A DNA stretch of 64,000 bases. Source: Tragulus kanchil (taxonomy: Eukaryota > Chordata > Mammalia > Artiodactyla > Tragulidae). The translations under genes were made by a program, and so were the position numbers. Of the stretch, positions 1-63,915 are shown one piece after another (within the stretch, counting starts at the first letter, position 1; each line of letters begins with the position of its first letter). The stretch covers positions 93,647,608 to 93,711,607 of the forward strand of contig JAIOJX010000025.1 of the NCBI GenBank assembly GCA_022376925.1, given 5' to 3'. The notes under the pieces were generated by a model, which saw only the letters and a list, made by a program, of their open reading frames with translations, was not told the origin of the DNA and searched no databases.

Positions 1-2143
1 AAATTCTGGCTGTCCTTAATGTCAGAAGAAAAACCTATGACTTCTGTATGAAATTTGACTTCCTTTTATCTGACTCAAGAACTAGATATGTCCATTTTAG
101 CACTGACTTACACAAATCTATGAGCTTTGGTTTGTGCTAAATTACTATAGCTAACTCCTTTTGAATTACCACTATTTTTCTTTTTCTTACCCATTCACTG
201 TGTACTTTTTTATTTTTAACATTTCAGTGCTAACTCTCTATATTTGGGTTATCTCAACCATTGTTTTAGAAGCATGTAAATCAAAAAATTAAGAGCTCAG
301 ACAGGCAGTACATCTTAGTGAGAAACCTTATGAATACTGGAAACAGTCTCTGGTTTGCCACCTGCCAGTCCTGGAATCTCCACCTGGTTATATAGGATCT
401 TTCACAGATGGAAAATAAGAATAAAAGTCATAGTGACTTTGGTTTTGGATGACTGAAATAGAAATTGAAAAATACAATACTCTGTACTAAGCACTAAGTG
501 TAAATACTAGCTGTGAATAAAGATCATAGTGACTTTGGTTTTGGATGACTGAAATAGAAATTGCAAAGTGCAATACTCTGCACTAAACACTAAGTATAAA
601 TACTAGCTGTGATGTGATTATTTCCTACATCTTTTGTCTAGAAGGAAATACTTGGTCTCTCTCAATTTCTCAAAGGACTCTGAAAGGAGCTAAAAGACAA
701 CAATAGTGCAAAAGGCTAAATTAACCCATACTCACATAATGATATTGTAGAGTGTTGGTAAGAGTGGATTGTGTATCTATGATTGTCATTATAAAGAGAT
801 TCATGAAACTACCTCAGGAATATCTATTAAATATTCATTTCATGAATCCAAAACAGTTGCACATTTTCTTTCTTTGCTTTAATCATATAGAATAAATCAC
901 AGCATATACTATCTTTGGGGCAGACTTTTAGCCTGATTTTAGGTGTCTGAAGGGGATGGTAAACACATACTACTAAAACATGGGTATGGTGCAGTTGACA
1001 GTCTAAACTATGCTTAGTTCATTGGCTTTCCAAGGGGGACATGTAAGAAAAAACCTGCTGAGGAACATCTCTGTATTTAGCCCAACAGATATGGAAAATG
1101 CTTCTCAAGTGTAGTCACTTTCTTAAGGATTCTTGTGATAAATTCTGGCTGTCCTTAATGTCAGAAGAAAAACCTATGACTTCTGTATGAAATTTGACTT
1201 CCTTTTATCTGACTCAAGAACTAGATATGTCCATTTTAGCACTGACTTACACAAATCTATGAGCTTTGGTTTGTGCTAAATTACTATAGCTAACTCCTTT
1301 TGAATTACCACTATTTTTCTTTTTCTTACCCATTCACTGTGTACTTTTTTATTTTTAACATTTCAGTGCTAACTCTCTATATTTGGGTTATCTCAACCAT
1401 TGTTTTAGAAGCATGTAAATCAAAAAATTAAGAGCTCAGACAGGCAGTACATCTTAGTGAGAAACCTTATGAATACTGGAAACAGTCTCTGGTTTGCCAC
1501 CTGCCAGTCCTGGAATCTCCACCTGGTTATATAGGATCTTTCACAGATGGAAAATAAGAATAAAAGTCATAGTGACTTTGGTTTTGGATGACTGAAATAG
1601 AAATTGAAAAATACAATACTCTGTACTAAGCACTAAGTGTAAATACTAGCTGTGAATAAAGATCATAGTGACTTTGGTTTTGGATGACTGAAATAGAAAT
1701 TGCAAAGTGCAATACTCTGCACTAAACACTAAGTATAAATACTAGCTGTGATGTGATTATTTCCTACATCTTTTGTCTAGAAGGAAATACTTGGTCTCTC
1801 TCAATTTCTCAAAGGACTCTGAAAGGAGCTAAAAGACAACAATAGTGCAAAAGGCTAAATTAACCCATACTCACATAATGATATTGTAGAGTGTTGGTAA
1901 GAGTGGATTGTGTATCTATGATTGTCATTATAAAGAGATTCATGAAACTACCTCAGGAATATCTATTAAATATTCATTTCATGAATCCAAAACAGTTGCA
2001 CATTTTCTTTCTTTGCTTTAATCATATAGAATAAATCACAGCATATACTATCTTTGGGGCAGACTTTTAGCCTGATTTTAGGTGTCTGAAGGGGATGGTA
2101 AACACATACTACTAAAACATGGGTATGGTGCAGTTGACAGTCT
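1..2143. repeat. Duplication A: 1-1004 repeated at 1140-2143
   Basis: Offset 1139 with no indel noticed over about 1 kb. The first copy starts at or before the window edge. After 1004 it skips about 30 bases present after 2143, then shares ATGCTTAGTTCATTG with the second copy before diverging. The 1005-1139 spacer is probably the left part of the same unit. Contents otherwise are AT-rich unrecognised DNA plus an internal old 96-bp tandem repeat. Confidence 0.95.
428..612. repeat. Older 96-bp tandem repeat (two units)
   Basis: Units at 428-523 and 524-612 share TCATAGTGACTTTGGTTTTG and the following 70 bases with scattered substitutions. The divergence shows it is a genuine old tandem duplication, unlike the near-identical 1.1-kb blocks. 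Recopied at 1567-1751 by duplication A. Confidence 0.85.
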
Positions 2144-2859
2144 TCAAGGAGAATCCTTTTGGAAATATGTTTGAAATATGCTTAGTTCATTGTTATCCTT
2201 TTTTCCTTCTAAGGTTTAAAAATGAAAATTGGAGAGAAATATTTAAAAATGGTGGAGAACTCTTAACTCTGCCCTTCCTATTTGCTTTTATCTTTCAGTG
2301 TTTATCTGACACTGAAATCCTGCAAGGTGCTGGTAGGTAGTAATTACCTCTTTTCATTGGGTTTTCATATTTTGTTTGTTTCATATGTCTGTGTATACAC
2401 ATATATCAATTTATACATATATGTATGTGTGTATATCTATGTATATATTTTATTGTACCCTTTTGTCTTTATGATGAAACTGTGGATCTCACAAATTTCT
2501 GTCTTCCCTCTCTTTTTTTATCTTTTATGTTGTGGTTTTTTTTCCTTTGGGAATGTAATAGTGGAATTAGCTAGCAATTTGGAAAGCCCCTATCAACACT
2601 GTGCTGAACTGAAATGCAATTACATGATTGCTTATTTAGGAGAAATATATGGATTTAGTAAAAATCCATCATTTTAATGCTGACTAGACTTAGAAAATTT
2701 CTCACTTCAATTGGTAGTTTGTTTCCAGTCAAGTTAAAAAGAAGCAAATGGGCTGATTAACTAAATAACAATCTCTGTTACTGTAACACAGGAATTATTT
2801 TGTCACAGTTGAAAATCAAATGTGTTCCAAAAAGAGATATTTACTGAGTGTAATTTGTT
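2144..2859. other. Unique AT-rich DNA, no gene seen
   Basis: Contains a TA/TG-rich low-complexity run at about 2390-2450. Two open frames here (2119-2340, 2282-2677) have no recognisable protein content and hydrophobic, T-rich composition. Confidence 0.6.
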
Positions 2860-3742: not shown

Positions 3743-4029
3743 ATTCTTATCTTTTTTTTTTTTTTTTTGATTCTTCTTTAAAAAAAAATCAAAAGTAATT
3801 GCTTCAAAGATTTTACTTAACCTTTATTCAGGGTTAAGATTTTAAGAAATTCAGTGAAATCTTCCTGATTGAGGTTGAAAATGAGGAATTTGGATAGTAA
3901 AGACCACAAACGTATGTTCGCATGAGCATTGTACTCCTTATTTCTTTTGTGTTAGATATTTTATATGCTTGCAGAACATCATTATAGAATGTAATTTTGT
4001 GTTCTAATTTCTTATGCAGTTTTTTAAAA

Positions 4030-4359
4030 AATATTGGTTATTTAATTGATTTATTTTTGGCTATCTTGGTTTTAACTTCTGCCACAGGCTCTCCTTTAGT
4101 TGCAGGGAGTGGCGGCTGCTCTCTAGTTGCGGTGAGCAGGCTTCTTGTTGCGGTGACTTTTCCTGTTGTGGAACTCGGGCTCCAGGGCTCAAGGGCTTCA
4201 GTAGTTGTGACTCCGAGGCTCTAGAGCACAGGCTCGATAGTTGTGGCTCATAGGCTTAGTTGCTCCGCAACATGTGGGATTTTCCTGAATTAGGGATCGA
4301 ACTTGTGTTCCGTGCGTTGCCAGGTGAACTCTTTACCAGTGAGCTACCAGGGAAGTCCT
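4030..4359 (-). mobile_element. CHR-family SINE, copy 1
   Basis: Minus-strand head GACTTCCCTGGTAGCTCACT and the CAACAAGAAGCCTGCTCACC-type body of CHR SINEs, tail towards 4030 with TTTATTTTTGGCT. The second copy is at 5115-5444. Confidence 0.8.
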
Positions 4360-4803
4360 AATTTCTTATAAAAATATAACTACTATTTTTCTGGTGGTCT
4401 TGAGATGACATAAACTTTGTGTAAGTTGAAAGTACACAGCTTGATGACTTGATATAGTGGTATATTGTGGAATGAAAACCACAGTAAGTTTAGTTACATC
4501 ATCTCACATAGCTACTTCTTTTTTTCTGTGGTGAGAACTTTTAAGATCTATTCTCTAGCAGTTTTCAAATATACAGCAATATTGTTAACTAAAGTCACCA
4601 TTCTGTGCAATGCATCCCCAGGACCTATTTCTCTTACAACTGGAGAGAAATAAAGTACAACTGTTTGTACCTTTTAACTATCTCTTTTCTTCATCATATA
4701 TTTATTATTCTTGATGCTTTTTCCTCTTTCAGATCTGTGAACTTTTTTCTCTGAAATCCCTTAGAAACTGTTTTCATGTCCACACTATTAAAGTCTTTAA
4801 TAG

Positions 4804-5000
4804 GGGCTTCCCTGGTGGTCCAGTGGGTAAGGACACCCCCTTGCAGTGCAGGGGGCACCAGTTCGATCCCTGGCCTGGGAAGATCCCACGTGCTGTAGAG
4901 CGGCTGGACTGATGTGTCCAATTACCGAGCCGGAGCTCTGGGCGCATGCACCCAGAGCCGGTGCTCTGCGATGACAGAGGCCACCACGATGGGAGGCCCA
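4804..5000 (+). mobile_element. CHR-type SINE, 3'-truncated at the duplication joint
   Basis: Starts GGCTTCCCTGGTGGTCCAGT and stops at GGGAGGCCCA with no 3' body, poly-A or target-site duplication. The complete form is at 5889-6197, so the cut lies exactly at the end of the first copy of duplication B. Confidence 0.85.
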
Positions 5001-5114
5001 AAAAAACGGCCAAGATGCTGTACTTATTTCTTTTGTGTTAGATATTTTATATGCTTGCAGAACATCATTATAGAATGTAATTTTGTGTTCTAATTTCTTA
5101 TGCAGTTTTTAAAA

Positions 5115-5444
5115 AATATTGGTTATTTAATTGATTTATTTTTGGCTATCTTGGTTTTAACTTCTGCCACAGGCTCTCCTTTAGTTGCAGGGAGTGGCGG
5201 CTGCTCTCTAGTTGCGGTGAGCAGGCTTCTTGTTGCGGTGACTTTTCCTGTTGTGGAACTCGGGCTCCAGGGCTCAAGGGCTTCAGTAGTTGTGACTCCG
5301 AGGCTCTAGAGCACAGGCTCGATAGTTGTGGCTCATAGGCTTAGTTGCTCCGCAACATGTGGGATTTTCCTGAATTAGGGATCGAACTTGTGTTCCGTGC
5401 GTTGCCAGGTGAACTCTTTACCAGTGAGCTACCAGGGAAGTCCT
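5115..5444 (-). mobile_element. CHR-family SINE, copy 2 (duplicate)
   Basis: Same element as at 4030-4359, repeated by duplication B with one T fewer in the tail run. Confidence 0.8.
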
Positions 5445-5888
5445 AATTTCTTATAAAAATATAACTACTATTTTTCTGGTGGTCTTGAGATGACATAAAC
5501 TTTGTGTAAGTTGAAAGTACACAGCTTGATGACTTGATATAGTGGTATATTGTGGAATGAAAACCACAGTAAGTTTAGTTACATCATCTCACATAGCTAC
5601 TTCTTTTTTTCTGTGGTGAGAACTTTTAAGATCTATTCTCTAGCAGTTTTCAAATATACAGCAATATTGTTAACTAAAGTCACCATTCTGTGCAATGCAT
5701 CCCCAGGACCTATTTCTCTTACAACGGGAGAGAAATAAAGTACAACTGTTTGTACCTTTTAACTATCTCTTTTCTTCATCATATATTTATTATTCTTGAT
5801 GCTTTTTCCTCTTTCAGATCTGTGAACTTTTTTCTCTGAAATCCCTTAGAAACTGTTTTCATGTCCACACTATTAAAGTCTTTAATAG

Positions 5889-6197
5889 GGGCTTCCCTGG
5901 TGGTCCAGTGGGTAAGGACACCCCCTTGCAGTGCAGGGGGCACCAGTTCGATCCCTGGCCTGGGAAGATCCCACGTGCTGTAGAGCGGCTGGACTGATGT
6001 GTCCAATTACCGAGCCGGAGCTCTGGAGCGCATGCACCCAGAGCCGGTGCTCTGCGATGACAGAGGCCACCACGATGGGAGGCCCACACGGGCCAAAGAA
6101 CAAAGATGGATGAAACTGAGTAAATGAAAGACCAATAGAAGTGGCCCTCCCGCCCCCTCCCTCCCCCACCTCAAAAAAAAAAAAAAAAAAAAAAAAA
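5889..6197 (+). mobile_element. CHR-type SINE, complete, with poly-A and target-site duplication
   Basis: Full element with 5' head, GATCCCTGGCCTGGGAAGAT B-box region, 3' body and an A-tail of over 20 bases. CTTTAATA flanks it at 5880-5887 and 6200-6207, the expected LINE-mediated target-site duplication. Confidence 0.88.
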
Positions 6198-7325: not shown

Positions 7326-7691
7326 ATGAGCAGTAGACTAGAGTTTAATGTATATAATAGCAATTATAGTATAGAATTTAATTTTGAAAAACCTTGAAGC
7401 TATATTAAGAAGTTTGGAATTTCATCTATAGACCTGCATTTTTTATTCTTATAAAAGTTAAAAATATTATGATGAATCCTCACTTCACTCTGCACATACT
7501 CAGAATCCAAACAGCATTAGATGGATGATCACAAATCCCTTGAACCCCATCTATAGAGCCCTTAGACCTAAAGACAATAAGCAGAAAGGAACAAAGTCAA
7601 ACCTTTTACAGAAATACATGGATGTAGTTGTACCAGAGAGATGCTAATGAGATCCACATTTAAAATTTTTTAAATGGTCATGGGAACAGAG
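7326..7691. other. Unique DNA, nothing recognised
   Basis: AT-rich, no clear repeat or reading frame. Confidence 0.5.
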
Positions 7692-7870
7692 ATAAAGTTG
7701 GTTTGGAAAACTTTTAAGAGATAGAATAAATAGGCGGTGGTGATTTTCTAGGGAGGGGATTAAAAGAAGCCAGAGGAGGCTGAAGAAATCTTTGAAATGT
7801 TTATGAAAATGATCCTACTGTACATTTCCTACCGAAATTTTCTCCCATTTCATGACTGACTTCTAGAGTC

Positions 7871-8190
7871 TGCTGCTGCTGCTTAGTCACTTCAGTTGTG
7901 TTTGACCCTGTGTGACCCCATGGCCTGCGTCCCACCAACTCCTCCGTCTGTGGAATTCTCCAGGCAAGAATACTCAAGTGGATTGCCATGCCCTCCTTCA
8001 GGGGGATCTTCTCAATCAAGGATGGAACCCAGGTCTACTGCACTGCAGGCAGATTCCTCACCAGTGAGCCATCAGGGAAGCTCCATATATATAAATTTGA
8101 GACCCCATAGACTGTAGCTCGCCAGGCTTCTCCAGCCATGGAATTTTTCAGGCAAGAATACTGGAGTGCATTGCCATTTCTTTCTCCAGG
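7871..8190 (-). mobile_element. Bov-tA plus BovA composite SINE, copy 1
   Basis: Minus-strand Bov-tA (tRNA head at the right: GAGCTTCCCTGATGGCTCAC) next to a further BovA monomer at about 8098-8190. CTAGAGTCT occurs on both sides (7863-7871, 8194-8202), a likely target-site duplication. Frames on either strand are SINE-derived. Confidence 0.85.
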
Positions 8191-8202
8191 CTGCTAGAGT
8201 CT

Positions 8203-8866
8203 AGCTAAAACCAAATGCAACTTTCTGTTCAAACACCTTGTTTACCAATTAATTAATGTCTTCTATTAGTATTGTATAATCCATAGTCCCAACTAGGACA
8301 ATGATTTTTAGATTCATCTTAAAAATATTTAAATCAAACTTACTTATGAAACACTAAGTTAACTGTATTTCCATAAAACTTCTGTTGCCAAAGGTATAAT
8401 TGATTAAGTAACACAGTTACTTAAACCAAAGAATTCAAAATTATTTTTGGAGATAAAAAGCCTCAAGTATCTTGTGTTTCTGGATTTATGTAGCAAATTT
8501 GAAGATTGAATCAACATTGGCAGTGGCACACTGATACTTTCATGGCATGGGTGTGCTGGAAGAGAATTTAGCACATGGGAGGATGATAAGAAAACCCCAC
8601 TGCTACTTAAGGTTGTGGTGGTCCCGAAAATCTATTGGTAGATTGTGTTGAGGTGGTCAGCATAGCCCTCCCAGGTCCTCATTTCATGAACTGGCCCATG
8701 GGACCTTGCACTGGAGTTAGTGCATAGGGAGTGAAAAGATCTTTGCAGTGCAAGACAGACTTTTTGGTGAGGCTGGATTCTTTGAGGCCTGGTGGAGAAA
8801 GGGTTCTAAGGCTGGTACCTCCCTTGGCCTCAGCTTTCCTGGAGTACTTGTAAGAGTGTGTGATTC
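8203..8866. other. Unrecognised DNA in duplication C
   Basis: Mixed-composition sequence without a clear repeat match or long frame; repeated at about 9392-10052. Confidence 0.5.
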
Positions 8867-9059
8867 GTAAAAAAGATAAGAATAAAGTTGGTTTGGAAAA
8901 CTTTTAAGAGATAGAATAAATAGGCGGTGGTGATTTTCTAGGGAGGGGATTAAAAGAAGCCAGAGGAGGCTGAAGAAATCTTTGAAATGTTTATGAAAAT
9001 GATCCTACTGTACATTTCCTACGAAATTTTCTCCCATTTCATGACTGACTTCTAGAGTC

Positions 9060-9379
9060 TGCTGCTGCTGCTTAGTCACTTCAGTTGTGTTTGACCCTGT
9101 GTGACCCCATGGCCTGCGTCCCACCAACTCCTCCGTCTGTGGAATTCTCCAGGCAAGAATACTCAAGTGGATTGCCATGCCCTCCTTCAGGGGGATCTTC
9201 TCAATCAAGGATGGAACCCAGGTCTACTGCACTGCAGGCAGATTCCTCACCAGTGAGCCATCAGGGAAGCTCCATATATATAAATTTGAGACCCCATAGA
9301 CTGTAGCTCGCCAGGCTTCTCCAGCCATGGAATTTTTCAGGCAAGAATACTGGAGTGCATTGCCATTTCTTTCTCCAGG
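9060..9379 (-). mobile_element. Bov-tA plus BovA composite SINE, copy 2 (duplicate)
   Basis: Same element as at 7871, repeated by duplication C. Confidence 0.85.
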
Positions 9380-10044
9380 CTGCTAGAGTCTAGCTAAAAC
9401 CAAATGCAACTTTCTGTTCAAACACCTTGTTTACCAATTAATTAATGTCTTCTATTAGTATTGTATAATCCATAGTCCCAACTAGGACAATGATTTTTAG
9501 ATTCATCTTAAAAATATTTAAATCAAACTTACTTATGAAACACTAAGTTAACTGTATTTCCATAAAACTTCTGTTGCCAAAGGTATAATTGATTAACACA
9601 GTTACTTAAACCAAAGAATTCAAAATTATTTTTGGAGATAAAAAGCCTCAAGTATCTTGTGTTTCTGGATTTATGTAGCAAATTTGAAGATTGAATCAAC
9701 ATTGGCAGTGGCACACTGATACTTTCATGGCATGGGTGTGCTGGAAGAGAATTTAGCACATGGGAGGATGATAAGAAAACCCCACTGCTACTTAAGGTTG
9801 TGGTGGTCCCGAAAATCTATTGGTAGAATGTGTTGAGGTGGTCAGCATAGCCCTCCCCAGGTCCTCATTTCATGAACTGGCCCATGGGACCTTGCACTGG
9901 AGTTAGTGCATAGGGAGTGAAAAGATCTTTGCAGTGCAAGACAGACTTTTTGGTGAGGCTGGATTCTTTGAGGCCTGGTGGAGAAAGGGTTCTAAGGCTG
10001 GTACCTCCCTTGGCCTCAGCTTTCCTGGAGTACTTGTAAGAGTG

Positions 10045-10230
10045 TGTGATTCTTTGTGACCCCATGCACTGTAGCCCACCACGCTCCTCTGTCCATGGAA
10101 TTCTCCAGGCCGAGAATACTGGAGTGGGTTGCCATTCCCTTCTCCAGGGGATCTTCCTGACTCAGGGATCAAACCCGGTTCTCCTGCGCTTCAGGCAGAT
10201 TCTTTACCATCTGAGCCACCAGGGAAGCCC
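10045..10230 (-). mobile_element. Bov-tA SINE
   Basis: Head on the minus strand GGCTTCCCTGGTGGCTCAGA, then the GTTTGATCCCTGAGTCAGGA B-box and BovA body down to the duplication C boundary. It is absent after the first copy of C because that copy stops at GATTC. Confidence 0.88.
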
Positions 10231-11756: not shown

Positions 11757-12044
11757 GTGTTCAGTTCAGTCACTCAGTCATGTCCGACTTTGTGACCACA
11801 TGGACTGCAACACACCAGGCTTCCCTGTCCTTTACCATCTCTCCCGAGCTTGCTCAGACTAATGTCCATTGACTCAGTGATGCCATCCAGCCTGTTGGCC
11901 CCTTCTCTTTCTGCCTTCTATTTTTTCCAGTATCATGGTCTTTTGTAATGAGTTGTCTCTTCTCATCAGGTGGCCAAAGTATTGGAGCTTCAGCTTCAGC
12001 ATCAGTCCTTCCAATGAATATTCAGGCTTGATTTCCTTTAGGAT
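11757..12044 (-). mobile_element. BovB (RTE) 3' end / ART2A
   Basis: GTTCAGTTCAGTCACTCAGT, GACTGCAACACACCAGGC, AGTGATGCCATCCAGCC and GGTGGCCAAAGTATTGGAGC in that order are the antisense of the BovB/ART2A 3' region. Confidence 0.9.
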
Positions 12045-12406
12045 TGCAATTTAAAGCTCCTTGCTTTTCTTGTTAGTGTCTGTCTCCCTGCTCAGCACAG
12101 AGACCCACATTAGATGTCCTCTGCTTCCTGTGCTATTCCAGTCACCTCTGTAGAAATCAGCTCAGCACTTGCCTTCTTGATGCTCTAGCTCCAGTCACTT
12201 CCAGCTATCACATCTTTTCCTGGCTTCTATTTTAGAATTTTCTCAAAAACTAAGGACACACATTTCAGATTTGATGATACAATTTAGTGTATTGTATTTG
12301 GTAATTGAAGGATTAAGACTCAAGTGTATTCAGGGTCCATGAGATAGTCATAAACTGAAGCTGGCAGAATGACAAACAGTAAGTATTAAATAAAGTGCTG
12401 GATAAT

Positions 12407-12496
12407 CCTGTGGACAGAGGAGCCTGGTGGACTACAGTCCATGGGGTCAGAAAGAGTTGGACACAATTGAGCAACTGAATACGCACACATGTGTTG
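12407..12496 (+). mobile_element. BovA/Bov-tA 3' fragment, copy 1
   Basis: CTGTGGACAGAGGAGCCTGG, CAGTCCATGGGGTCAGAAAG and TTGGACACAATTGAGCAACT are the 3' part of the BovA unit. Repeated at 13525-13614. Confidence 0.82.
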
Positions 12497-12784
12497 ATTG
12501 CTAGCAATAATAATTACCATTCAGATACATGGTCTTTCAAGTCTCTATGCCAGTAAGACAAAATGGTCAAACAGGATACCTTCACAAATTGTGCAGTTGA
12601 TGCCCTAAACATTTTTACATATTCTTCACAGTTTAAGTAGTACACCATTTCCTGAACATCTCTTTGGTCAAAATTCCTGAAATATTAATTAGTGCACATT
12701 GTGTTTTGTATGAGTGCTTATGAAATGGAAAAATTAAAATATGGTTTTACAAGCTTATTGGGAAAATAAAACTTTTCCAAAAAA

Positions 12785-12962
12785 TCAAGAATAACATAAA
12801 TAAGCTATGAGGATATATTGTACAACACAGGTAATAAAGCCAGTATTTCATAGTAACTATAAATGGAGTATTGCCTTTAGAGTTGTGAATCACTTTGTTG
12901 TACACCTGAAACTTATATAATGTTATAAATCAACTATACTTCAATTAAAAAAGAAAAGAAAA
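12785..12962 (+). mobile_element. L1 3' UTR end with A-rich tail, copy 1
   Basis: GATATATTGTACAACACAGG, GTTGTACACCTGAAACTTAT and ATCAACTATACTTCAATTAA followed by A-rich sequence are the sense 3' terminus of artiodactyl L1. Repeated at 13904-14081. Confidence 0.82.
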
Positions 12963-13524
12963 TGTGGCTATTCTCTTGTTTGCCGGGCCTGAGCTTGGAG
13001 GATTACCATGGATATCTAGTGCTTCCTCTTCCCAAGTCAGCTCTCTTGTTGACTTCCTAGTGGTCTGGGTCCTGATTTTCTTCTGCTATAGAGAGCGATG
13101 TAGTGGAACTGCTTTGGCTTCCAAGGCAGAAGGAAATGATGCTGAGCGGTTTCCTTTAGGATTGCAATTTAAAGCTCCTTGCTTTTCTTGTTAGTGTCTG
13201 TCTCCTGCTCAGCACAGAGACCCACATTAGATGTCCTCTGCTTCCTGTGCTATTCCAGTCACCTCTGTAGAAATCAGCTCAGCACTTGCCTTCTTGATGC
13301 TCTAGCTCCAGTCACTTCCAGCTATCACATCTTTTCCTGGCTTCTATTTTAGAATTTTCTCAAAAACTAAGGACACACATTTCAGATTTGATGATACAAT
13401 TTAGTGTATTGTATTTGGTAATTGAAGGATTAAGACTCAAGTGTATTCAGGGTCCATGAGATAGTCATAAACTGAAGCTGGCAGAATGACAAACAGTAAG
13501 TATTAAATAAAGTGCTGGATAATC

Positions 13525-13614
13525 CTGTGGACAGAGGAGCCTGGTGGACTACAGTCCATGGGGTCAGAAAGAGTTGGACACAATTGAGCAACTGAATACG
13601 CACACATGTGTTGA
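13525..13614 (+). mobile_element. BovA/Bov-tA 3' fragment, copy 2 (duplicate)
   Basis: Same fragment as at 12407, copied by duplication D. Confidence 0.82.
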
Positions 13615-13903
13615 TTGCTAGCAATAATAATTACCATTCAGATACATGGTCTTTCAAGTCTCTATGCCAGTAAGACAAAATGGTCAAACAGGATACCTTC
13701 ACAAATTGTGCAGTTGATGCCCTAAACATTTTTACATATTCTTCACAGTTTAAGTAGTACACCATTTCCTGAACATCTCTTTGGTCAAAATTCCTGAAAT
13801 ATTAATTAGTGCACATTGTGTTTTGTATGAGTGCTTATGAAATGGAAAAATTAAAATATGGTTTTTACAAGCTTATTGGGAAAATAAAACTTTTCCAAAA
13901 AAT

Positions 13904-14081
13904 CAAGAATAACATAAATAAGCTATGAGGATATATTGTACAACACAGGTAATAAAGCCAGTATTTCATAGTAACTATAAATGGAGTATTGCCTTTAGAG
14001 TTGTGAATCACTTTGTTGTACACCTGAAACTTATATAATGTTATAAATCAACTATACTTCAATTAAAAAAGAAAAGAAAAT
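13904..14081 (+). mobile_element. L1 3' UTR end, copy 2 (duplicate)
   Basis: Same fragment as at 12785, copied by duplication D. Confidence 0.82.
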
Positions 14082-14270
14082 GTGGCTATTCTCTTGTTTG
14101 CCGGGCCTGAGCTTGGAGGATTACCATGGATATCTAGTGCTTCCTCTTCCCAAGTCAGCTCTCTTGTTGACTTCCTAGTGGTCTGGGTCCTGATTTTCTT
14201 CTGCTATAGAGAGCGATGTAGTGGAACTGCTTTGGCTTCCAAGGCAGAAGGAAATGATGCTGAGCGGTTT

Positions 14271-15022: not shown

Positions 15023-15067
15023 CTAAGGAACCAAAGCTCATAGACTAGTCTGTTACAGTGCCCAATA

Positions 15068-51252: not shown

Positions 51253-52136
51253 GTTCTTCCTCATGATAGCCATTCTAACAGATATGAGGTGATAGCTCAT
51301 TGCGATTTTGTTTTGCACTTCTCTGGTGATGTTTAGCATCTTTTCATATGTTAGCCTGTTGGCCATGTGTATGTCTTTGGGAAAATATCTGTCTATTCAG
51401 GTCTTTTGCCCATTTTTTAATTAGTTTGGGTTTTATTGATACTGAATTATATGAGCTATTTATATATTTTGGATATTAATCCCTTGTTGGTCATATCTTT
51501 TACAGGTATTTATCTCATTGAATAAGTTGTCGTTTTGTCAATGGTTTCCTTTGCTGTGCTGCAGCTTTTAAGTTTAATTAGATCCCGTTTGTCTATTTTC
51601 GCTTTTGTTTGCTTTGCTTTAGGAAATTGATCCAAAACAATACTGCTGCAGTTTATGTGTTTTCACCATGTTTTTTCCTAGGAGTTCTTTGGTTTTGGTC
51701 TTAGCGTTAGGTCTTTAATCAATATGAGTTTATTTTTTATATGGTGTGAGAAAATGATCTAGTTTTACTCTTTTAGATGTAACTATCTAGTTTTAATAGC
51801 ACCAGTTATTGAAGAAATTGTCATTTCTCATTACATAGTCTTGCCTCTTTTATCATAGATTGATAAGTGTGTGAGTTTATTTCTGGGCTGTTTTTTTCTG
51901 TTAAATTAATTTATGTGTCTGTTTTTGTACTGGTACCATAGTGTTTTGATAACTGTAGCTTTGTTTTAAAGTCTGAAGTCAGGGTGATTCCTCCAGCTCC
52001 GTTTTTCTTTTTCAAAATTGCTTTGGCTATTTGGGGCCTTTTGTTCCTCCATACAGATTTTAAGATTGTTTTGTTCTAGTTCTGTGAAAAATGCCCTGGT
52101 AATTTGATAAGATTGCATTGAATCTGTAGATTGTCT
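49426..52136 (-). mobile_element. L1 element, antisense, 3' UTR to ORF2 (interrupted by duplication P)
   Basis: Antisense 3' UTR near 49430 (TTTCAGGTGTACAACG, ATCCCTATAGCC), then CTATCTGACTGATTTAACTA, GAGTGGAATTGCTGAATCAT, ATCATTGTACAAGGGTTCCG, GTTGGCCATGTGTATGTCTT, TATATTTTGGATATTAATCC and TTAAGTTTAATTAGATCCCG, ending near GTAGATTGTCTTAGAG. This is the standard L1 order. About 0.6 kb of the element is present twice. ORF2 is broken by many stops. Confidence 0.9.
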
Positions 52137-52272
52137 TAGAGTCTCACCTTTATGACCTCATGTAAGTTTAATTACAGGCCTGTAAAAGCCCTGATTCCAA
52201 ATATAGTCACACTGGGGCTTGGGGGTTTAACCTCTGAACTTTGTAGGGACAGAATTCAGTCAATAGCACTGT
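52137..52272 (+). mobile_element. MaLR-type LTR 3' fragment, copy 1
   Basis: CTCATGTAAGTTTAATTACA, CCAAATATAGTCACACTGGG and CAGAATTCAGTCAATAGCAC match the 3' end of a MaLR LTR. Repeated at about 53262-53395. Confidence 0.6.
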
Positions 52273-52687
52273 TTTTTTTAATTACCAAAGTTTGATGTAT
52301 GTATTATTACATATTAATTAGTAAAATGCCCACAATGGATGCTAATTAGATAGTGTCTGGAATAGAAATCGTTACTACAAACTTGATGGTTTTTCTTAGA
52401 AATCTTTAAGGACTAGCAGAGATAGGAGTAAGGAATGCATTTAAAATAAATGATAAGCTGTGGAAAAAATATTACTGGGGTGTATTTTTATGGGATTTTT
52501 TGTATGATTTTCTGTATTGTTTGAATTTTAATATTGATTCTCTGTAAGAATTCATTCCTACTAGTGATAATATGTGCCAGTTAGTGACTACTCACTGCAT
52601 AATACCTAGAAGAATTTCTTTTTATATAACCTCTTTTGATCCCAGCATCAACTCTAATAAGATACAGAGAGAATAATATTCATTTTG

Positions 52688-52803
52688 AAGGAAGAAGTTA
52701 TAGCCTGTGGTTTAGAGCGTGGGCTCTGAGTCCATTCTGACTAGTTTGCCTGCTGCCAGCTACATTAGTATAGACAGGTTGCTTAACCTTTCTGTGTCTT
52801 AGT
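52688..52803 (+). mobile_element. MIR fragment, copy 1
   Basis: GTGGTTTAGAGCGTGGGCTC and AGGTTGCTTAACCTTTCTGT are the 5' and middle of sense MIR. Repeated at 53817-53933. Confidence 0.75.
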
Positions 52804-53174
52804 TTATTAGGTATCTATTGCTACAGAACAGTTGTCTTAAAAGCTACATTAAACATGTATTTTCTGAAAGCTCTCAAGGGTTGTGAGAGGGCTGCATTTA
52901 TGTGAAGGCTTGACCGAGGCTGGGAGACCTGCTTCCAGGGTGGTTCATTCACATGGCTGGCAATGTTGTGCTGGCTGTTGGTGAGAGTTCCTTTCTCTGT
53001 GAGCCTCTCCTGATGGCTGCTAGAGTGTTGCCGTAACATGTAGCTGGCTTCTCAGCAGAAATAAGCACATCAAGAGAGATGGAAGCTATCCTTTCAATGG
53101 CCTAACCTCAGAAATCAAATAGCATCATATCTACCACATCATATTCATTAAGAGCAAGCCCTAATTGGCATATT
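52804..53174 (+). mobile_element. MLT1 LTR, cut at the duplication joint
   Basis: TTATTAGGTATCTATTGCTA, AGGCTTGACCGAGGCTGGGA, CATTCACATGGCTGGCAATG and GCTATCCTTTCAATGG follow MLT1 order, stopping at CCCTAATTGGCATATT. Confidence 0.8.
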
Positions 53175-53933
53175 CTCCATACAGATTTTAAGATTGTTTT
53201 GTTCTAGTTCTGTGAAAAATGCCCTGGTAATTTGATAAGATTGCATTGAATCTGAGTTGTCTTAGAGTCTCACCTTTATGACCTCATGTAAGTTTAATTA
53301 CAGGCCTGTAAAAGCCCTGATTCCAAATATAGTCACACTGGGGCTTGGGGGTTTAACCTCTGAACTTTGTAGGGACAGAATTCAGTCAATAGCACTGTTT
53401 TTTTTAATTACCAAAGTTTGATGTATGTATTATTACATATTAATTAGTAAAATGCCCACAATGGATGCTAATTAGATAGTGTCTGGAATAGAAATCGTTA
53501 CTACAAACTTGATGGTTTTTCTTAGAAATCTTTAAGGACTAGCAGAGATAGGAGTAAGGAATGCATTTAAAATAAATGATAAGCTGTGGAAAAAATATTA
53601 CTGGGGTGTATTTTTATGGGATTTTTTGTATGATTTTCTGTATTGTTTGAATTTTAATATTGATTCTCTGTAAGAATTCATTCCTACTAGTGATAATATG
53701 TGCCAGTTAGTGACTACTCACTGCATAATACCTAGAAGAATTTCTTTTTATATAACCTCTTTTGATCCCAGCATCAACTCTAATAAGATACAGAGAGAAT
53801 AATATTCATTTTGAAGGAAGAAGTTATAGCCTGTGGTTTAGAGCGTGGGCTCTGAGTCCATTCTGACTAGTTTGCCTGCTGCCAGCTACATTAGTATAGA
53901 CAGGTTGCTTAACCTTTCTGTGTCTTAGTTTAT

Positions 53934-54345
53934 TAGGTATCTATTGCTACAGAACAGTTGTCTTAAAAGCTACATTAAACATGTATTTTCTGAAAGCTCT
54001 CAAGGGTTGTGAGAGGGCTGCATTTATGTGAAGGCTTGACCGAGGCTGGGAGACCTGCTTCCAGGGTGGTTCATTCACATGGCTGGCAATGTTGTGCTGG
54101 CTGTTGGTGAGAGTTCCTTTCTCTGTGAGCCTCTCCTGATGGCTGCTAGAGTGTTGCCGTAACATGTAGCTGGCTTCTCAGCAGAAATAAGCACATCAAG
54201 AGAGATGGAAGCTATCCTTTCAATGGCCTAACCTCAGAAATCAAATAGCATCATATCTACCACATCATATTCATTAAGAGCAAGCCCTAAATTTGGGCCA
54301 TATTCAAGAGGAGAGGAATTAAGCACCATCTTTTGAAGGAAAGCA
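53934..54345 (+). mobile_element. MLT1 LTR, more complete copy
   Basis: Same element as at 52804 but continuing through GGCCATATTCAAGAGGAGAG to its 3' end, as expected for the intact locus. Confidence 0.82.
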
Positions 54346-55875: not shown

Positions 55876-58580
55876 CTGTAACAGATATAATAATATTTAA
55901 TTTATATTAAGCCTCAGCATAATGCCTTTTGAGTCTCTGGTGACCAAATTATTTATACTTTGTTGAATCAGTGAAGAGAAAGGGCGAGAGGTCCATGTTC
56001 ATAAAAACAGTGAGCTTATAGTTTTATTAGGGAAATAGAAGAGATACATAGAGAACCAGGATACACAGAACAAAGTGAATTTGAGGAGGAATGATTACTA
56101 AATCAGATGATAGGGAAGGTTTATGAAAGAAGGAAGTAATACTTGAACTGGGTGTTTTGGAGGACTGGTAGAATTAGCATAGATGGTGTGTGGTTTAGGA
56201 AGAAAGGATTATATAAACAAAGGTGTTTGGAAAACGGGTACATGATTGCAACAGTGAGCACAGTGTGTTTGGGAAGGTGAGGGGAGATGTGTGGTTAATT
56301 TAATATTATGGGTTTGGTGGTTTGTCAGTAACATTAATCAAATACTGAAGTGACACATTCTTCAGTAATTTTATTACTTAGTAAAATTCATCATTTTATT
56401 GGTTCTAAAATTTTTCCTCTATTTAAAGAAATATTTTGTCAAACTAATACATGCATACAGTTTTATGAAAAACTCAAATAAAGTGAAAAGATTTATGTAG
56501 TAGAACCCTAACTGTAGGCAATTAACACTTTGGGAGCCCTTAATTTTCTTTCCCAGAGGAAATAATTTTTCACTTGTCTAGCTATTCTTTGGGTGTTTGC
56601 TTCCAGTTGATAATATGATGTCTTGATTTCTCACTTTCAGACATTATCTCACTGCATCTACTTATGAAATATGCAATTAGCTCTATTATGTTGTTACTTA
56701 CTACAGTATCATTCTGCCACAAGTTTAGCTGTTGATTTTGTATGTATTTAATTAATTTATGCCTTGTTAACAGTATATAAGGATGTGTACATGCGTGAAG
56801 TGTATTGCCTGATGTTAATATGTCTTAGATTTATAGAATATTATGTGAATGAAAATAGTCCGCAGTTTTTTTAGATTGGTCCAATCCACCATTTTGCCTA
56901 TTTTTCAAAATATCAACTCATTTATCAGGTCTTTATTTCTGGAGAAATTCCTCTTGACCCTTTTTCTTCTTCTCCCACCTGAACCCAGTAGTAGGTGTCA
57001 CCCTGAGGCTCTTTCCACAGTCTTCCTGTAGCTGCCCTTCCTGGCAGTTTGTTTTTGTCTCTTGTGTTGGACACTCAGCAGATCCCTGCAACCTGGAAAA
57101 TACTGTCTCTTGGTCTTGGAAATGTGCTTGTATTTTATTATTCCTTTAGAGAATTGATCTTTGTTTTAAAATTCTGTTACCCATGAAATTTAATCAACTT
57201 TATTTTCCATCCTTGTTTGTTTTAAAATTTTGGCTTTTTGAAGTATCAGTGTATTCATGCTCTGTTTCTTTTCCAAGTACTCTATTTTGTTTTATTGTAT
57301 TTTTACTCTTTCTGTGATACAAGTAAAGCATTGGAGAATGTTTGTGCACTGGTTTGGTTTTCTATCCCCCTGTGTTTCTGTCCATGGGATTTCTTTTTGC
57401 CTCTCTTTACTCAAACATAGGAGGACCTTTGGCTGCTGTGAGTTAGGAATCGTATTTTGTACATAGACCAGTGGGCTTGTCTACTGGCATGCTTCACTTC
57501 AGGAGAATTAGATGGTGGGGATAGAGGGAAACCTAACTGTCTCATTGGGCGCCCACAAATGTCATTATGTGGGCATGTTTTTCTCTTCAGCCATTGAGTT
57601 CCTTGAGCAAGAGTGGAAGAGACGTGGGAAGTGTGTTAATGGGGCTGTTATTTCTTAGCACATTTTCACTCATCTGCACATTTTCAGCTGTGTTCCTTGC
57701 TCTCGACTTTAGCTATTTCAGATGGCCAAGAATCCACTGACATTGTGCGAAGCCTGAGCCTCAGCATCCTGCCTGCCAGCACACGCGCCTGGGAGCTGGG
57801 GTGGCCGAGGCTGCTTGAGTTTGACAGGCTTTCAGGCAGTCTGTCTGTTTTCAGTCATTGGCATTCACTTCCAAATGGCTTTGAAATCTCCCCTCCTTCT
57901 GTTCTTTTCTGCTGTTCTTTTTTTGCCCGCGGGTGCTTGTACTTTTTAAACACCATTTTAATGTCATTTTAGTGGGATCTTAAGAAGAATATGGGATCAG
58001 TTTGTCTGTTTAAATGGACATTCTTTGTCTTCCACTCATCCCTGTTTGATTTTAAATGGGAAGAATTTTATAATAGCAGGTGTGTAAACAGTGTGAGAGT
58101 CAAGTGCCTATGATTTTTAGCTTATGAGCATGAGCATTGATAATTTAGATAGCATCTGTTTTTCTTAAGAAAGCTGCCCTCGTAATGCTATTTTAATCAG
58201 CACAATGCCTTCATATCTTAATGTACTAGTTATTAAGTTATCACTCCATGTGTAATAAGAGCTCCATAAGAAGTGTGTGCAGTATTTCCTTCGCTTGGTT
58301 CATTCCTTACTGAGAAGTTCCTTTCCTTTGAAAATTATTAAACTCTCACAAATTTGTTCCTATGAAAAACAGAATCATTATATTAGACTCCACTTTCAGG
58401 CCCTTTCCATTTCCAGTATGTGTCTTTTAGGTGTTTTATAAGCAGTGCCAAATATATAAATTATGCATTTTGTCCTGGGTAAAGACCTAAACACAGAGCA
58501 GAATTAAAGCGTTGCCATCTGCGTTTCTGTTCAAGCTGCCAGTCAATCAGAAGTGTGAAACCTCCACTGCAATAAATTGA
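55876..58580. other. FAM13A intron 3, nothing recognised
   Basis: About 2.7 kb of single-copy DNA. Frames near 57238-57466 and 57697-57972 are not recognised. Confidence 0.5.
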
Positions 58581-60699
58581 AAATGTGGTGCCAGGAAATA
58601 CAGGTTTCCACACATGACTTTATACATTTTGATGATATTCGAGTTATTTTGGCTTCCACCCAGATCCATGTGACAGGAAAACCTCATTCTTATTTGTTAT
58701 CCCGTGATCTCTTAAGGTTGTAGATCCTAATAACTAGATGATCTTCAATTTACTGAGTACATATATGAATATCCTCATGATGGTCTTTGACACTTTGAGA
58801 TAGTGTGAGGTAATGGGTGGGAGGATGCAAATTTGGGAAGATCATGACTGAGCCAAGTTACTCTGCATTAGAACTGGTCCTGAGGCATGCGTGTGTTGTG
58901 AATGTGCGTGTGTGTAAATTTGTTGAAATCCTTCATCTACTCTTGGCGTTTCAGCTGTATTCTCTTTATCGTTGATGGCTCATACCTTAAGGAATTCTTG
59001 TCATCTTTGTGAGGTATTAAGAGGAAAAGTAGATTAACTCATCTTTAACTGAAAGTTCTCTTATGACTTTTTCCTACACTGGATTTTAAATACAACAGAA
59101 TTGACTTATTTTTTACCGAAATACAATGTACATATGATAAAACTGACCCTTTTAAAGTGTACACTTCGGTGGAATTTACTGTGTTCACTGAGGGCAATCA
59201 TCACTATCTGGATTTAGAATATTTTTATCACTTCCAAAAGAAATTCCAAGCCCATTAGTATACACTCCACATCCCTTCCCCAGGTCCCCCTTCTACTCCT
59301 GCTAGCCCTAGGCAAGCACTTCTTTCTGTCTATGTAGATTTGCCTATTATGGCCATTTCTTATAAATGGAATCACATAATATGTTGTTTTTTGTGACTTC
59401 TTTGGCTTAGCACAAGTTTCAAAGTTCATTATGTTGGAATGTGTATCAGTACTTCGTTCTTTTATGGCCGGGTAATATTCTGTTGCATGACTATACTACA
59501 TTGTACTTACACATTCGTCCATTGATGGGCATTTGGGTTGTTTTCACTTGTTGACTCATACAGTTATTGCTGCTGTGAACATTTTATACAAGTTCTTCTA
59601 TGAACATATGTGTTAATTTCTCTTGAGTATCTGCTTATTGGAAATGTGGTGCCAGGAAATACAGGTTTCCACACATGACTTTATACATTTTGATGATATT
59701 CGAGTTATTTTGGCTTCCACCCAGATCCATGTGACAGGAAAACCTCATTCTTATTTGTTATCCCGTGATCTCTTAAGGTTGTAGATCCTAATAACTAGAT
59801 GATCTTCAATTTACTGAGTACATATATGAATATCCTCATGATGGTCTTTGACACTTTGAGATAGTGTGAGGTAATGGGTGGGAGGATGCAAATTTGGGAA
59901 GATCATGACTGAGCCAAGTTACTCTGCATTAGAACTGGTCCTGAGGCATGCGTGTGTTGTGAATGTGCGTGTGTGTAAATTTGTTGAAATCCTTCATCTA
60001 CTCTTGGCGTTTCAGCTGTATTCTCTTTATCGTTGATGGCTCATACCTTAAGGAATTCTTGTCATCTTTGTGAGGTATTAAGAGGAAAAGTAGATTAACT
60101 CATCTTTAACTGAAAGTTCTCTTATGACTTTTTCCTACACTGGATTTTAAATACAACAGAATTGACTTATTTTTTACCGAAATACAATGTACATATGATA
60201 AAACTGACCCTTTTAAAGTGTACACTTCGGTGGAATTTACTGTGTTCACTGAGGGCAATCATCACTATCTGGATTTAGAATATTTTTATCACTTCCAAAA
60301 GAAATTCCAAGCCCATTAGTATACACTCCACATCCCTTCCCCAGGTCCCCCTTCTACTCCTGCTAGCCCTAGGCAAGCACTTCTTTCTGTCTATGTAGAT
60401 TTGCCTATTATGGCCATTTCTTATAAATGGAATCACATAATATGTTGTTTTTTGTGACTTCTTTGGCTTAGCACAAGTTTCAAAGTTCATTATGTTGGAA
60501 TGTGTATCAGTACTTCGTTCTTTTATGGCCGGGTAATATTCTGTTGCATGACTATACTACATTGTACTTACACATTCGTCCATTGATGGGCATTTGGGTT
60601 GTTTTCACTTGTTGACTCATACAGTTATTGCTGCTGTGAACATTTTTATACAAGTTCTTCTATGAACATATGTGTTAATTTCTCTTGAGTATCTGCTTA
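58581..60699. repeat. Duplication R: 58581-59637 repeated at 59642-60699
   Basis: Offset 1061-1062 (one extra T in ATTTTTATACAAG). A 4-base joint; ends inside an L1. Confidence 0.96.
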
Positions 60700-60953: not shown

Positions 60954-61743
60954 TAGACTTTTGTAATAGCGTGAAGATTATAGGCTTGAAGGGGGAAAAA
61001 GAGAGATCCAGTAGCTCCAGGGTCATGAAAATAATGTCTGTTGGGGATTTTTAGAATGAATTATCACAAACTGAGTGAGATACTCAGTAAATTCTGTACC
61101 TTTCATGAATGCTTTCATGAGGAGGTCTTCTTTAGACCGAGCTGGAGGCAGGAAAGAGAGAATAGCCAACAAAGAAGTTACTAAAAAAAAAGTAAAACCA
61201 CCTGTATCAATAGGATCAACTCATAAAATACTGAAAATTTGCTAAAATAGTGTCAGTTTGAAGGGATGCCAACTGACATGCTTGAAGGCACCTGCAGCTC
61301 TCCCTGAACTGTGTTAATCTATGCCCCAAAACCCTCCTTTGCTGAGCTGATGGACTTAGTCAGCGCTTACACTGATTTCATAAACCATTTGAAGACGTCA
61401 GGGGAAGGAGGAGACATCCAAACAGTCTTAAATAACTTGGGCTGTGGCTTAGGTAACAGGACACCAAGTCAGTCCCGTCCTCTTACAGCTGAGCAATCGT
61501 GTCCCCTGGATCAGTACTGAGGGGTGGGTAGAAGAGGAGTAATATGATTTGCACTGAATCTACGTACTTCCTGTACTTTGCTCACTTACAATATCACTAG
61601 ATTTATGGAGAAAGCAAAGTTTTATTGGCTGGGATATTGCCGGTATTGTTGAAGATTAACATCCTTGTGGGAGGCTCCCCCTCCTATATGGTCTGACAGT
61701 TCTTCCCACTCGCTTGTGTACAGACTTTCCCACACTATAAACA
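60954..61743. other. FAM13A intron 3, nothing recognised
   Basis: A 69-residue frame at 61311-61520 shows no recognisable family. Confidence 0.5.
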
Positions 61744-63915
61744 AGATCTTTGGGTGTTACATGTTTGTGTCTCACATTTAGCCAAGATGTGAGCTCCCAG
61801 TTTTGCTATTTAGATAGAGTATTTTACATGCTTGCTATATTTTTAATTGAGGTCTTTGTCCCCACTGAGTGGCATTCAGCACTCAGTAAATGCCCACAGA
61901 ATAGATTTGCTGATGTACTGCTTGACGTCAAGAGTTCGTTTTTAGTTTTAGGACTGAAATGTAAAGCATCACCCAGTTCTTTGTTCTTCCCGTGCCCCTT
62001 GCCTTGCCTTTCACATGTTGGTCCATTCGGGGAGTGGGAGTGTCAATCTAGATACCAGCTAACTTGGCAGTAAACACACCTCTGCATCTTGCAGAAGCTA
62101 ATCAGAAATGATAAGATTTGTAGTTTCATTAATGACATCTAGGAGTAGGCTGTCATTTATTAATTTTTATTAGTTACTTTATCATCCTGTCCTTTGAGAA
62201 ATTTGTGTGAGAACTTTGTCATGGGAAAGGGTTGCAAAAAAGCTGTAAGAATATAACCTCTCCTTTCACATGGAAAAATACCAGTTCCATTAATCATAAG
62301 ATGGAATTATGTACATAAACTTCTCATCACTCTAAAGACGTGATCCCACTCATGAGGAATGAAACACAGAGGGAAAACCCAGTCTAATGTAGGAGAGCTG
62401 ACATTTTATAATTGTTTTCCCATTCTTCTGTGCTTGCATGTTTAGAAAGCAACCGAATTCATGTGTTGTTTATTGTTAGAGGTTTCATGAAGCATTTTGA
62501 GTCCACACATTCTTAGACGCTTTTGTACAATGTTAAGCTATTTTCCCCACATAGGCCCCAGGACCTAAGAAGTTATATTTGATTGTAAATGAATGAAGAC
62601 TTCTCCTTCCTACTGCTCACCAGTTTTGCTTGTTTGTTTGTGGACTCAAAAAACACTTCTTAAGTACCGACATGTCTGAGACAGCGTGCTGGGTGCTGTA
62701 TGATTATGACACAATAGTAATCTTTATCGGTGTGCATTGGTCAGATCATGTGCTCTGAGGTCAGAATGCCGGATTTGAGAGGCAGGCTACTTGGTAGTGG
62801 TGTGAACATGGAAAAGCCTCTTATTTGCTATTTAGAATAAAAGATCTTTGGGTGTTACATGTTTGTGTCTCACATTTAGCCAAGATGTGAGCTCCCAGTT
62901 TTGCTATTTAGATAGAGTATTTTACATGCTTGCTATATTTTTAATTGAGGTCTTTGTCCCCACTGAGTGGCATTCAGCACTCAGTAAATGCCCACAGAAT
63001 AGATTTGCTGATGTACTGCTTGACGTCAAGAGTTCGTTTTTAGTTTTAGGACTGAAATGTAAAGCATCACCCAGTTCTTTGTTCTTCCCGTGCCCCTTGC
63101 CTTGCCTTTCACATGTTGGTCCATTCGGGGAGTGGGAGTGTCAATCTAGATACCAGCTAACTTGGCAGTAAACACACCTCTGCATCTTGCAGAAGCTAAT
63201 CAGAAATGATAAGATTTGTAGTTTCATTAATGACATCTAGGAGTAGGCTGTCATTTATTAATTTTTATTAGTTACTTTATCATCCTGTCCTTTGAGAAAT
63301 TTGTGTGAGAACTTTGTCATGGGAAAGGGTTGCAAAAAAGCTGTAAGAATATAACCTCTCCTTTCACATGGAAAAATACCAGTTCCATTAATCATAAGAT
63401 GGAATTATGTACATAAACTTCTCATCACTCTAAAGACGTGATCCCACTCATGAGGAATGAAACACAGAGGGAAAACCCAGTCTAATGTAGGAGAGCTGAC
63501 ATTTTATAATTGTTTTCCCATTCTTCTGTGCTTGCATGTTTAGAAAGCAACCGAATTCATGTGTTGTTTATTGTTAGAGGTTTCATGAAGCATTTTGAGT
63601 CCACACATTCTTAGACGCTTTTGTACAATGTTAAGCTATTTTCCCCACATAGGCCCCAGGACCTAAGAAGTTATATTTGATTGTAAATGAATGAAGACTT
63701 CTCCTTCCTACTGCTCACCAGTTTTGCTTGTTTGTTTGTGGACTCAAAAAACACTTCTTAAGTACCGACATGTCTGAGACAGCGTGCTGGGTGCTGTATG
63801 ATTATGACACAATAGTAATCTTTATCGGTGTGCATTGGTCAGATCATGTGCTCTGAGGTCAGAATGCCGGATTTGAGAGGCAGGCTACTTGGTAGTGGTG
63901 TGAACATGGAAAAGT
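61744..63915. repeat. Duplication S: 61744-62817 repeated at 62842-63915
   Basis: Offset exactly 1098 with no difference seen; a 24-base joint (62818-62841). The identical 107-residue frames at 61750 and 62848 are read-outs of this unit, not a gene pair. The first copy stops within an MIR. Confidence 0.96.
62740..62817 (+). mobile_element. MIR 5' fragment, cut at a duplication joint
   Basis: GATCATGTGCTCTGAGGTCA, GGTAGTGGTGTGAACATGGA stops at GAAAAG where the joint begins. The intact form is at 63838. Confidence 0.65.

What the first reader, a model, noticed from the sequence alone, without database searches (positions are those of the whole stretch)
1..63915. Nineteen near-identical ~1.1-kb tandem duplications cover the whole window
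Direct pairs (first copy / second copy): 1-1004/1140-2143; 3938-5000/5024-6086; 7692-8866/8882-10052; 12032-13152/13150-14270; 15023-16141/16153-17267; 17771-18813/18814-19856; 20537-21624/21631-22719; 22471-23568/23604-24702; 24354-25399/25418-26463; 28901-30021/30031-31151; 34293-35394/35405-36506; 37015-38115/38147-39246; 38866-39949/39956-41039; 40988-42053/42054-43126; 42791-43867/43876-45018; 49012-50131/50131-51252; 52047-53174/53175-54304; 58581-59637/59642-60699; 61744-62817/62842-63915. Boundaries are by eye, good to a few bases. The units share no sequence with each other, only a size (about 1.04-1.19 kb), and they ignore exon, SINE and LINE borders. No known biological process gives this, whereas contig ends or gap-fill flanks that overlap by about 1 kb and were concatenated would. 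About 21 kb is redundant.
Basis: partly seen in the sequence, partly recalled or inferred. Interest (0 to 1): 0.9.

Follow-up and report, generated by a model that had tools for sequence, protein, structure and literature searches.

The report
Untrimmed assembly overlaps, not real duplications
The nineteen tandem copies are really in this sequence file, but their pattern shows they are most likely an assembly error in which neighbouring pieces overlapping by about 1.1 kb were pasted end to end without trimming, so they say nothing about the animal's DNA.

Summary
In detail: 19 of 19 direct pairs were recovered by self-alignment, offset 1042-1191 bp, and 18,978 of 18,980 successive repeated 40-mer pairs lie at offset 1000-1199. 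About 21.0 of 64.0 kb is redundant. (1) Near unit ends, bases are missing on the joint side: leaving out the outermost 15 bp, gaps are in copy 2 at unit starts (10 events to 0) and in copy 1 at unit ends (5 to 0). (2) Some linkers at the joints are degraded echoes of flanking sequence (4 of 11; summed p 0.0005), though an earlier anchored test found none. (3) No unit contains another unit's joint; five neighbouring pairs overlap, giving triplicated segments. (4) SINE homology crosses three outer borders but 0 of 19 joints. (5) A joint cuts a probable exon and fuses the remainder to a SINE. Most likely, consensus blocks that each overlap the next by ~1.1 kb were concatenated untrimmed, probably by a long-read assembler whose joining step failed; a wtdbg-type layout is an unproven guess. 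The class of error is known; no biology is indicated.

The parts
1..2143 (.). Pair 1: 1-1004 / 1140-2143, 100% identical; linker 1005-1139 echoes the sequence after 2143
3937..6086 (.). Pair 2: 3937-5000 / 5023-6086; joint truncates a SINE that is continuous through 6086
7688..10052 (.). Pair 3: 7688-8866 / 8879-10052
12032..14270 (.). Pair 4: 12032-13152 / 13150-14270
15023..17267 (.). Pair 5: 15023-16141 / 16153-17267; copy 2 lacks 4 bases near the joint
17774..19856 (.). Pair 6: 17774-18813 / 18816-19856
20528..22719 (.). Pair 7: 20528-21624 / 21623-22719; most diverged pair (97.6%), with missing bases next to the joint on both sides
22468..24702 (.). Pair 8: 22468-23568 / 23601-24702; overlaps pair 7, so a segment occurs three times
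24354..26463 (.). Pair 9: 24354-25399 / 25418-26463, 100%; linker echoes the sequence after 26463; overlaps pair 8
28901..31151 (.). Pair 10: 28901-30021 / 30031-31151
34272..36506 (.). Pair 11: 34272-35394 / 35389-36506; five 1-bp losses at the joint side of copy 2 (the first 21 bp may be a chance extension by BLAST)
37015..39246 (.). Pair 12: 37015-38115 / 38147-39246; contains a probable coding exon (FAM13A by recall); linker echoes the sequence before 37015
38866..41039 (.). Pair 13: 38866-39949 / 39956-41039, 100%; unit starts inside the exon, so the exon's third copy is cut and fused to a SINE
40988..43126 (.). Pair 14: 40988-42053 / 42054-43126; overlaps pairs 13 and 15
42783..45018 (.). 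Pair 15: 42783-43867 / 43867-45018; copy 1 lacks about 66 bp near the joint
49012..51252 (.). Pair 16: 49012-50131 / 50131-51252
52047..54305 (.). Pair 17: 52047-53175 / 53175-54305
58576..60699 (.). Pair 18: 58576-59637 / 59637-60699
61743..63914 (.). Pair 19: 61743-62816 / 62841-63914, 100%

Best explanation
The window is a chain of separately built pieces, 1.8-6.5 kb between joints. Each overlaps the next by a nearly constant ~1.1 kb, and they were written end to end without removing the overlap. Each overlap therefore appears twice, and a segment covered by two successive overlaps appears three times. Piece ends are error-rich (mostly missing bases), plausibly because few reads support them; this may have made the overlap alignment fail and left noisy linkers. 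Shown: the constant overlap, losses on the joint side, flank echoes in 4 of 11 linkers, no nested joints. Inferred: that the pieces are consensus blocks of a noisy-long-read assembler, later polished; my leading guess is a wtdbg-type program, recalled to join units sharing a ~1,024-bp node. No such duplication exists in the animal. The confidence given is for the untrimmed-overlap artefact as a whole; the pipeline step is less certain (the gap-fill version, listed as a rival, is one form of it).
For: All 19 offsets lie within 1042-1191 bp while collapsed steps between units vary from 719 to 5401 bp. 31 of 50 difference events fall in the outer 100 bp at the two unit ends (18% of the bases; binomial p=1.1e-11). 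Gaps are in copy 2 at unit starts (15 vs 2) and in copy 1 at unit ends (7 vs 2), Fisher p=0.0016; counted once per pair 8 vs 2 and 5 vs 1, p=0.035; with the outermost 15 bp left out, where BLAST may have extended by chance, 10 vs 0 and 5 vs 0 events (p=0.0003), 7 vs 0 and 4 vs 0 pairs (p=0.003). Of 11 linkers of 6 bp or more, 4 (pairs 1, 9, 12, 15) match the adjoining flank better than random window segments (p<=0.0035 each; summed p=0.0005, the floor of 2,000 draws). 0 of 19 units contain another joint: p=0.02 under random sequential tandem duplication; minimum step of 719 bp or more has p=0.0011 under uniform placement. Repeat homology spans an outer border in pairs 2, 13 and 14 (two SINEs) and 0 of 19 joints. 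A joint fuses part of a probable exon to a SINE. Tandem false duplications from overlapping contig boundaries are described in PMC8081667 (passages).
Against: No reads, second assembly or assembly record could be consulted. 7 of 11 linkers show no significant echo, and an anchored form of the linker test found none (0 of 11). Before trimming, 4 of 26 end-zone gaps are on the wrong side (pairs 8 and 15). Mid-unit gaps lean to copy 1 (7 vs 2), which the model does not predict. Repeat homology also ends within 12 bp of two outer borders (pair 3 right, pair 14 right). Against the wtdbg guess: a benchmark lists only 158 structural errors in a human wtdbg2 CLR assembly (PMC8590762, passages), so this would need an old, misused or failing run; the wtdbg parameters are recalled, not sourced.
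Confidence: 0.98

Rival explanations
1. Gap-fill or scaffold-join form of the same artefact: patches carrying ~1-kb flanks, or scaffold neighbours overlapping by ~1 kb, were inserted without trimming, at a later pipeline step than the assembler's own consensus.
For: Also gives a constant overlap length and poor sequence at piece ends.
Against: Two flanks per patch predict duplications in pairs with joints at least ~2.2 kb apart; five of 18 spacings are 1.79-2.10 kb. It would need a gap about every 2.3 kb of true sequence (mean step 2,323 bp).
Confidence: 0.25
2. Haplotype (heterotype) false duplication: the two copies are the two parental alleles placed side by side.
For: A few substitutions between copies (15 in 20,685 bp).
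Against: Four pairs are 100% identical over 1.0-1.1 kb (pairs 1, 9, 13, 19), differences concentrate near unit ends, and allelic duplications would not be expected to share one fixed length.
Confidence: 0.02
3. Real germline or somatic tandem duplications of about 1.1 kb, produced by an unknown size-fixed process.
For: The copies lie in one N-free sequence; several joints have no linker or an overlap of 1-6 bp, which could be read as blunt joins or microhomology.
Against: Losses on the joint side, flank echoes in linkers, no nested joints, a joint through a probable exon. I know of no mechanism that would make 19 near-identical, same-size duplications of unrelated sequence in 43 kb.
Confidence: 0.01

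Closest known systems
False homotype duplications at contig boundaries (Rhie et al. 2021, PMC8081667; passages seen)
   Same: [quoted passage not shown] one example was traced to an assembler bug.
   Different: Here the window is N-free and the overlaps recur about every 2.3 kb of true sequence with a fixed ~1.1 kb size; in that paper scaffolding leaves a gap between the copies.
Duplicated overlapping contigs in draft genomes, including cow UMD1.6 (Kelley and Salzberg 2010, PMC2864568; passages seen)
   Same: Neighbouring contigs that overlap but were not merged; most mis-assembled contigs under 2 kb.
   Different: Those are attributed to heterozygosity, with median identity 98.1% and few above 99.5%; here 15 of 19 pairs exceed 99.5%.
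wtdbg/wtdbg2 layout units that share a ~1,024-bp node (recalled; the paper is not held)
   Same: Recalled parameters predict an overlap of about 1 kb plus slop and a minimum step of about 768 raw bases; observed overlaps 1042-1191, shortest steps 719, 729 and 753.
   Different: wtdbg2 assemblies in one benchmark carry few structural errors (PMC8590762, passages), so joining normally works; program and settings for this window are unknown.

Membership tests
False homotype duplication (assembly error class) | Two tandem copies of one locus, near-identical | tested here: met
   19 of 19 pairs, 97.6-100% identity
[quoted passage not shown]
   No reads available; four pairs are 100% identical
False homotype duplication (assembly error class) | Lies at a boundary between assembled pieces | tested here: inconclusive
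   Joint-side losses, linker echoes and repeat continuity indicate piece ends, but no assembly record could be read
False homotype duplication (assembly error class) | Gap of N between the copies after scaffolding (typical, not required) | tested here: not met
   The window contains only A, C, G and T; this points to joining within a contig or to later gap closing
False heterotype duplication | Copies differ as two alleles do, spread along the unit | tested here: not met
   31 of 50 events are in the outer 100 bp; 19 events in 16,885 middle bases
wtdbg-type untrimmed layout units | Overlap of one ~1,024-bp node plus slop; step at least ~768 raw bp (recalled parameters) | tested here: inconclusive
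   Overlaps 1042-1191 and shortest steps 719, 729, 753 are compatible; program not known
Biological tandem duplication | Joint joins intact copy end to intact copy start; later events may include earlier joints | tested here: not met
   Joint-side losses in part of the pairs, noisy linkers in 4 of 11, 0 of 19 units with a foreign joint; pairs 9, 13 and 19 alone would not decide it

The most novel reading that the evidence does not exclude
The duplications are real and this animal carries a burst of size-fixed ~1.1-kb tandem duplications. The evidence speaks strongly against it but, without reads, cannot exclude it formally.
Probability: 0.01. Interest if true: 0.9.

Novelty: not a real feature. 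Interest (0 to 1): 0.1.

Why it matters
For biology it does not matter. For users of this assembly it does: about a third of the window is false sequence, a probable coding exon appears up to three times with one copy cut, and counts of tandem duplications, exon gains or copy-number differences made from such sequence would be wrong. The signature (fixed-length tandem pairs, losses on the joint side, no nested joints) can be found from sequence alone and could serve as a quick filter.

Tried and rejected
Rejected: haplotype duplication (differences sit near unit ends, four pairs identical); real tandem duplication; classic gap-fill flanks as the main reading (joint spacing). A first linker test anchored at the match ends gave no significant result in any of 11 linkers, perhaps because several linkers begin with a deletion; an unanchored local test, designed after seeing the alignments, gave 4 of 11. 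Both are reported. The difference tally could be inflated by chance BLAST extension at unit ends and by several events in one pair; a check by pair and with 15 or 25 bp trimmed kept the direction: 10 vs 0 and 5 vs 0 events at 15 bp, 7 vs 0 and 3 vs 0 at 25 bp; total end-zone events fell from 31 of 50 to 16 of 35 and 10 of 29.

Pfam scans of ORFs (10, 2) and a PDB sequence search did not identify the exon; one sub-threshold TMEM52 match to a neighbouring frame was ignored. Nine literature searches gave the general error class; in their listings and the passages seen of five papers I saw none that describes this gap-free ~1.1-kb pattern every few kb. That is not proof of absence; most subscription papers are not held.
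Full report
OBSERVATION. The window (64,000 bases, only A, C, G and T) was aligned to itself. Identity is 97.6-100%; pairs 1, 9, 13 and 19 are identical over 1.0-1.1 kb, and 15 of 19 exceed 99.5%. A k-mer count shows 36,856 of 63,961 positions with a repeated 40-mer, and 18,978 of 18,980 successive repeat pairs at offset 1000-1199; one mononucleotide shuffle has no repeated 20-mer. So the pattern is in the file and far beyond chance. Subtracting one offset per pair leaves about 43.0 kb (arithmetic only, the sequence was not built).

WHERE THE COPIES DIFFER. The copies were aligned pair by pair (pair 15 was counted within its BLAST limits 42783-43816/43867-44899). Of 50 difference events, 31 lie in the first or last 100 bp of a unit, 18% of the bases (p=1.1e-11). 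At unit starts the gap is in copy 2 in 15 events and in copy 1 in 2; at unit ends it is in copy 1 in 7 and in copy 2 in 2 (Fisher p=0.0016). The start of copy 2 and the end of copy 1 are the two sides of the joint, so the missing bases are mostly on the joint side, as expected if each joint is where two poorly supported piece ends meet. Events within a pair are not independent, and BLAST may extend a few bases by chance. A check therefore counted each pair once (8 vs 2 and 5 vs 1; p=0.035) and left out the outermost 15 bp (10 vs 0 and 5 vs 0 events, p=0.0003; 7 vs 0 and 4 vs 0 pairs, p=0.003) or 25 bp (7 vs 0 and 3 vs 0 events, p=0.008). The direction becomes complete. In the middle zone (16,885 bases) there are 19 events: 10 substitutions, 7 gaps in copy 1 and 2 in copy 2. 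That last lean is not explained.

WHAT LIES BETWEEN THE COPIES. Eleven of 19 joints carry 6-135 bp between the matched copies; the other eight have 0-2 bp or a slight overlap. A local comparison of each linker with 100 bp beyond the overlap on either side (one side only for pair 1), against 2,000 draws of random window segments, gave p=0.0005 for pairs 1, 9 and 15, 0.0035 for pair 12, and nothing significant for the other seven; summed over the 11, p=0.0005, the floor of the test. An earlier anchored version found nothing, and the local version was chosen after seeing the alignments. Where the echo is present it is a damaged copy of the flanking sequence, so the true overlap extends past the clean match into noise. 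Pair 15 can also be read as copy 1 lacking about 66 bp close to its end.

ARRANGEMENT. No unit contains the joint of another (0 of 19). Under random sequential tandem duplication this has probability 0.02; under uniform placement a minimum collapsed step of 719 bp or more has probability 0.0011. In five places neighbouring units overlap (7/8, 8/9, 12/13, 13/14, 14/15) and the shared segment occurs three times. A chain of pieces that each overlap the next by ~1.1 kb gives all of this: triplication wherever a piece is shorter than two overlaps, and never a joint inside an overlap.

INTERNAL OUTGROUPS. Interspersed repeats elsewhere in the window show which borders are natural. Homology to other SINE copies runs continuously across an outer border in pairs 2, 13 and 14 (the borders of 13 and 14 lie in one and the same SINE); it crosses 0 of 19 joints, and at the joints of those three pairs it stops. 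The other outer borders are not spanned and so are uninformative; at two of them (pair 3 right, pair 14 right) repeat hits end within 12 bp, at scattered positions, which I take for natural repeat ends but cannot prove. A probable coding exon (ending ...ENGVPAIVGSLVEYLTMHG) occurs near 37.7 and 38.85 kb; its third copy near 39.98 kb starts in mid-exon and continues, in frame, a SINE. A cut piece would give this.

MECHANISM. Best reading: pieces 1.8-6.5 kb between joints, overlapping by ~1.1 kb, were concatenated without trimming. The near-constant overlap beside widely varying steps (719-5401 bp) suggests that the overlap is a program constant plus slop, not a property of the DNA. Indel-type, loss-biased errors at the ends suggest noisy long reads followed by polishing (inference). 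From recall, wtdbg-type assemblers build consensus for units that share a node of about 1,024 bp and keep neighbouring nodes at least about 768 raw bases apart; the observed overlaps and shortest steps (719, 729, 753 bp) are compatible. I put this attribution at about 0.4: the tool's paper is not held, and a benchmark counts only 158 structural errors in a human wtdbg2 CLR assembly (PMC8590762, passages). If joins failed at this rate genome-wide the assembly would be about 1.5 times too large (64.0/43.0), so the failure may be confined to some contigs; the genome could not be searched.

COMPARISON WITH THE KNOWN. The Vertebrate Genomes Project describes homotype false duplications at contig boundaries, often as long as the reads, one case due to an assembler bug (PMC8081667, passages). 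Kelley and Salzberg counted duplicated overlapping contigs in draft cow, chimpanzee, chicken and dog genomes (PMC2864568, passages). Ko et al. describe the resulting false exon and gene gains (PMC9516828, passages). This window works like the homotype class. It differs in having no N between copies, a fixed size and a high density. The read-depth and k-mer criteria of the class could not be tested.

VERDICT. It is not a biological feature. The 0.98 is for the untrimmed-overlap artefact in any form; the gap-fill form (0.25) is part of it.

Noticed in passing
window 39732-40064 (+): An open frame runs from a SINE into the second part of the probable FAM13A exon (RhoGAP-type by recall; no Pfam match); it exists only because of the joint at about 39950 and could be annotated as a false chimeric exon.
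   Followed up: partly
window 419-612 and 60802-60952: Short local direct repeats (98 bp at offset 96, 92%; 75 bp at offset 76, 92%), unlike the 19 units in size and identity; they look like ordinary local duplications.
   Followed up: no
window 3469-3740, 5886-6166, 40842-41122, 46655-46936, 55078-55345: Related SINE copies (81-92% alike) that serve as internal outgroups for which unit borders are natural.
   Followed up: yes
middle of the units, e.g. window 12745, 41113, 49462, 49591: Mid-unit differences are few (19 events in 16,885 bases: 10 substitutions, 9 gaps) and the gaps lean to copy 1 (7 vs 2), suggesting that the two copies were built or polished separately; the lean is unexplained.
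   Followed up: partly
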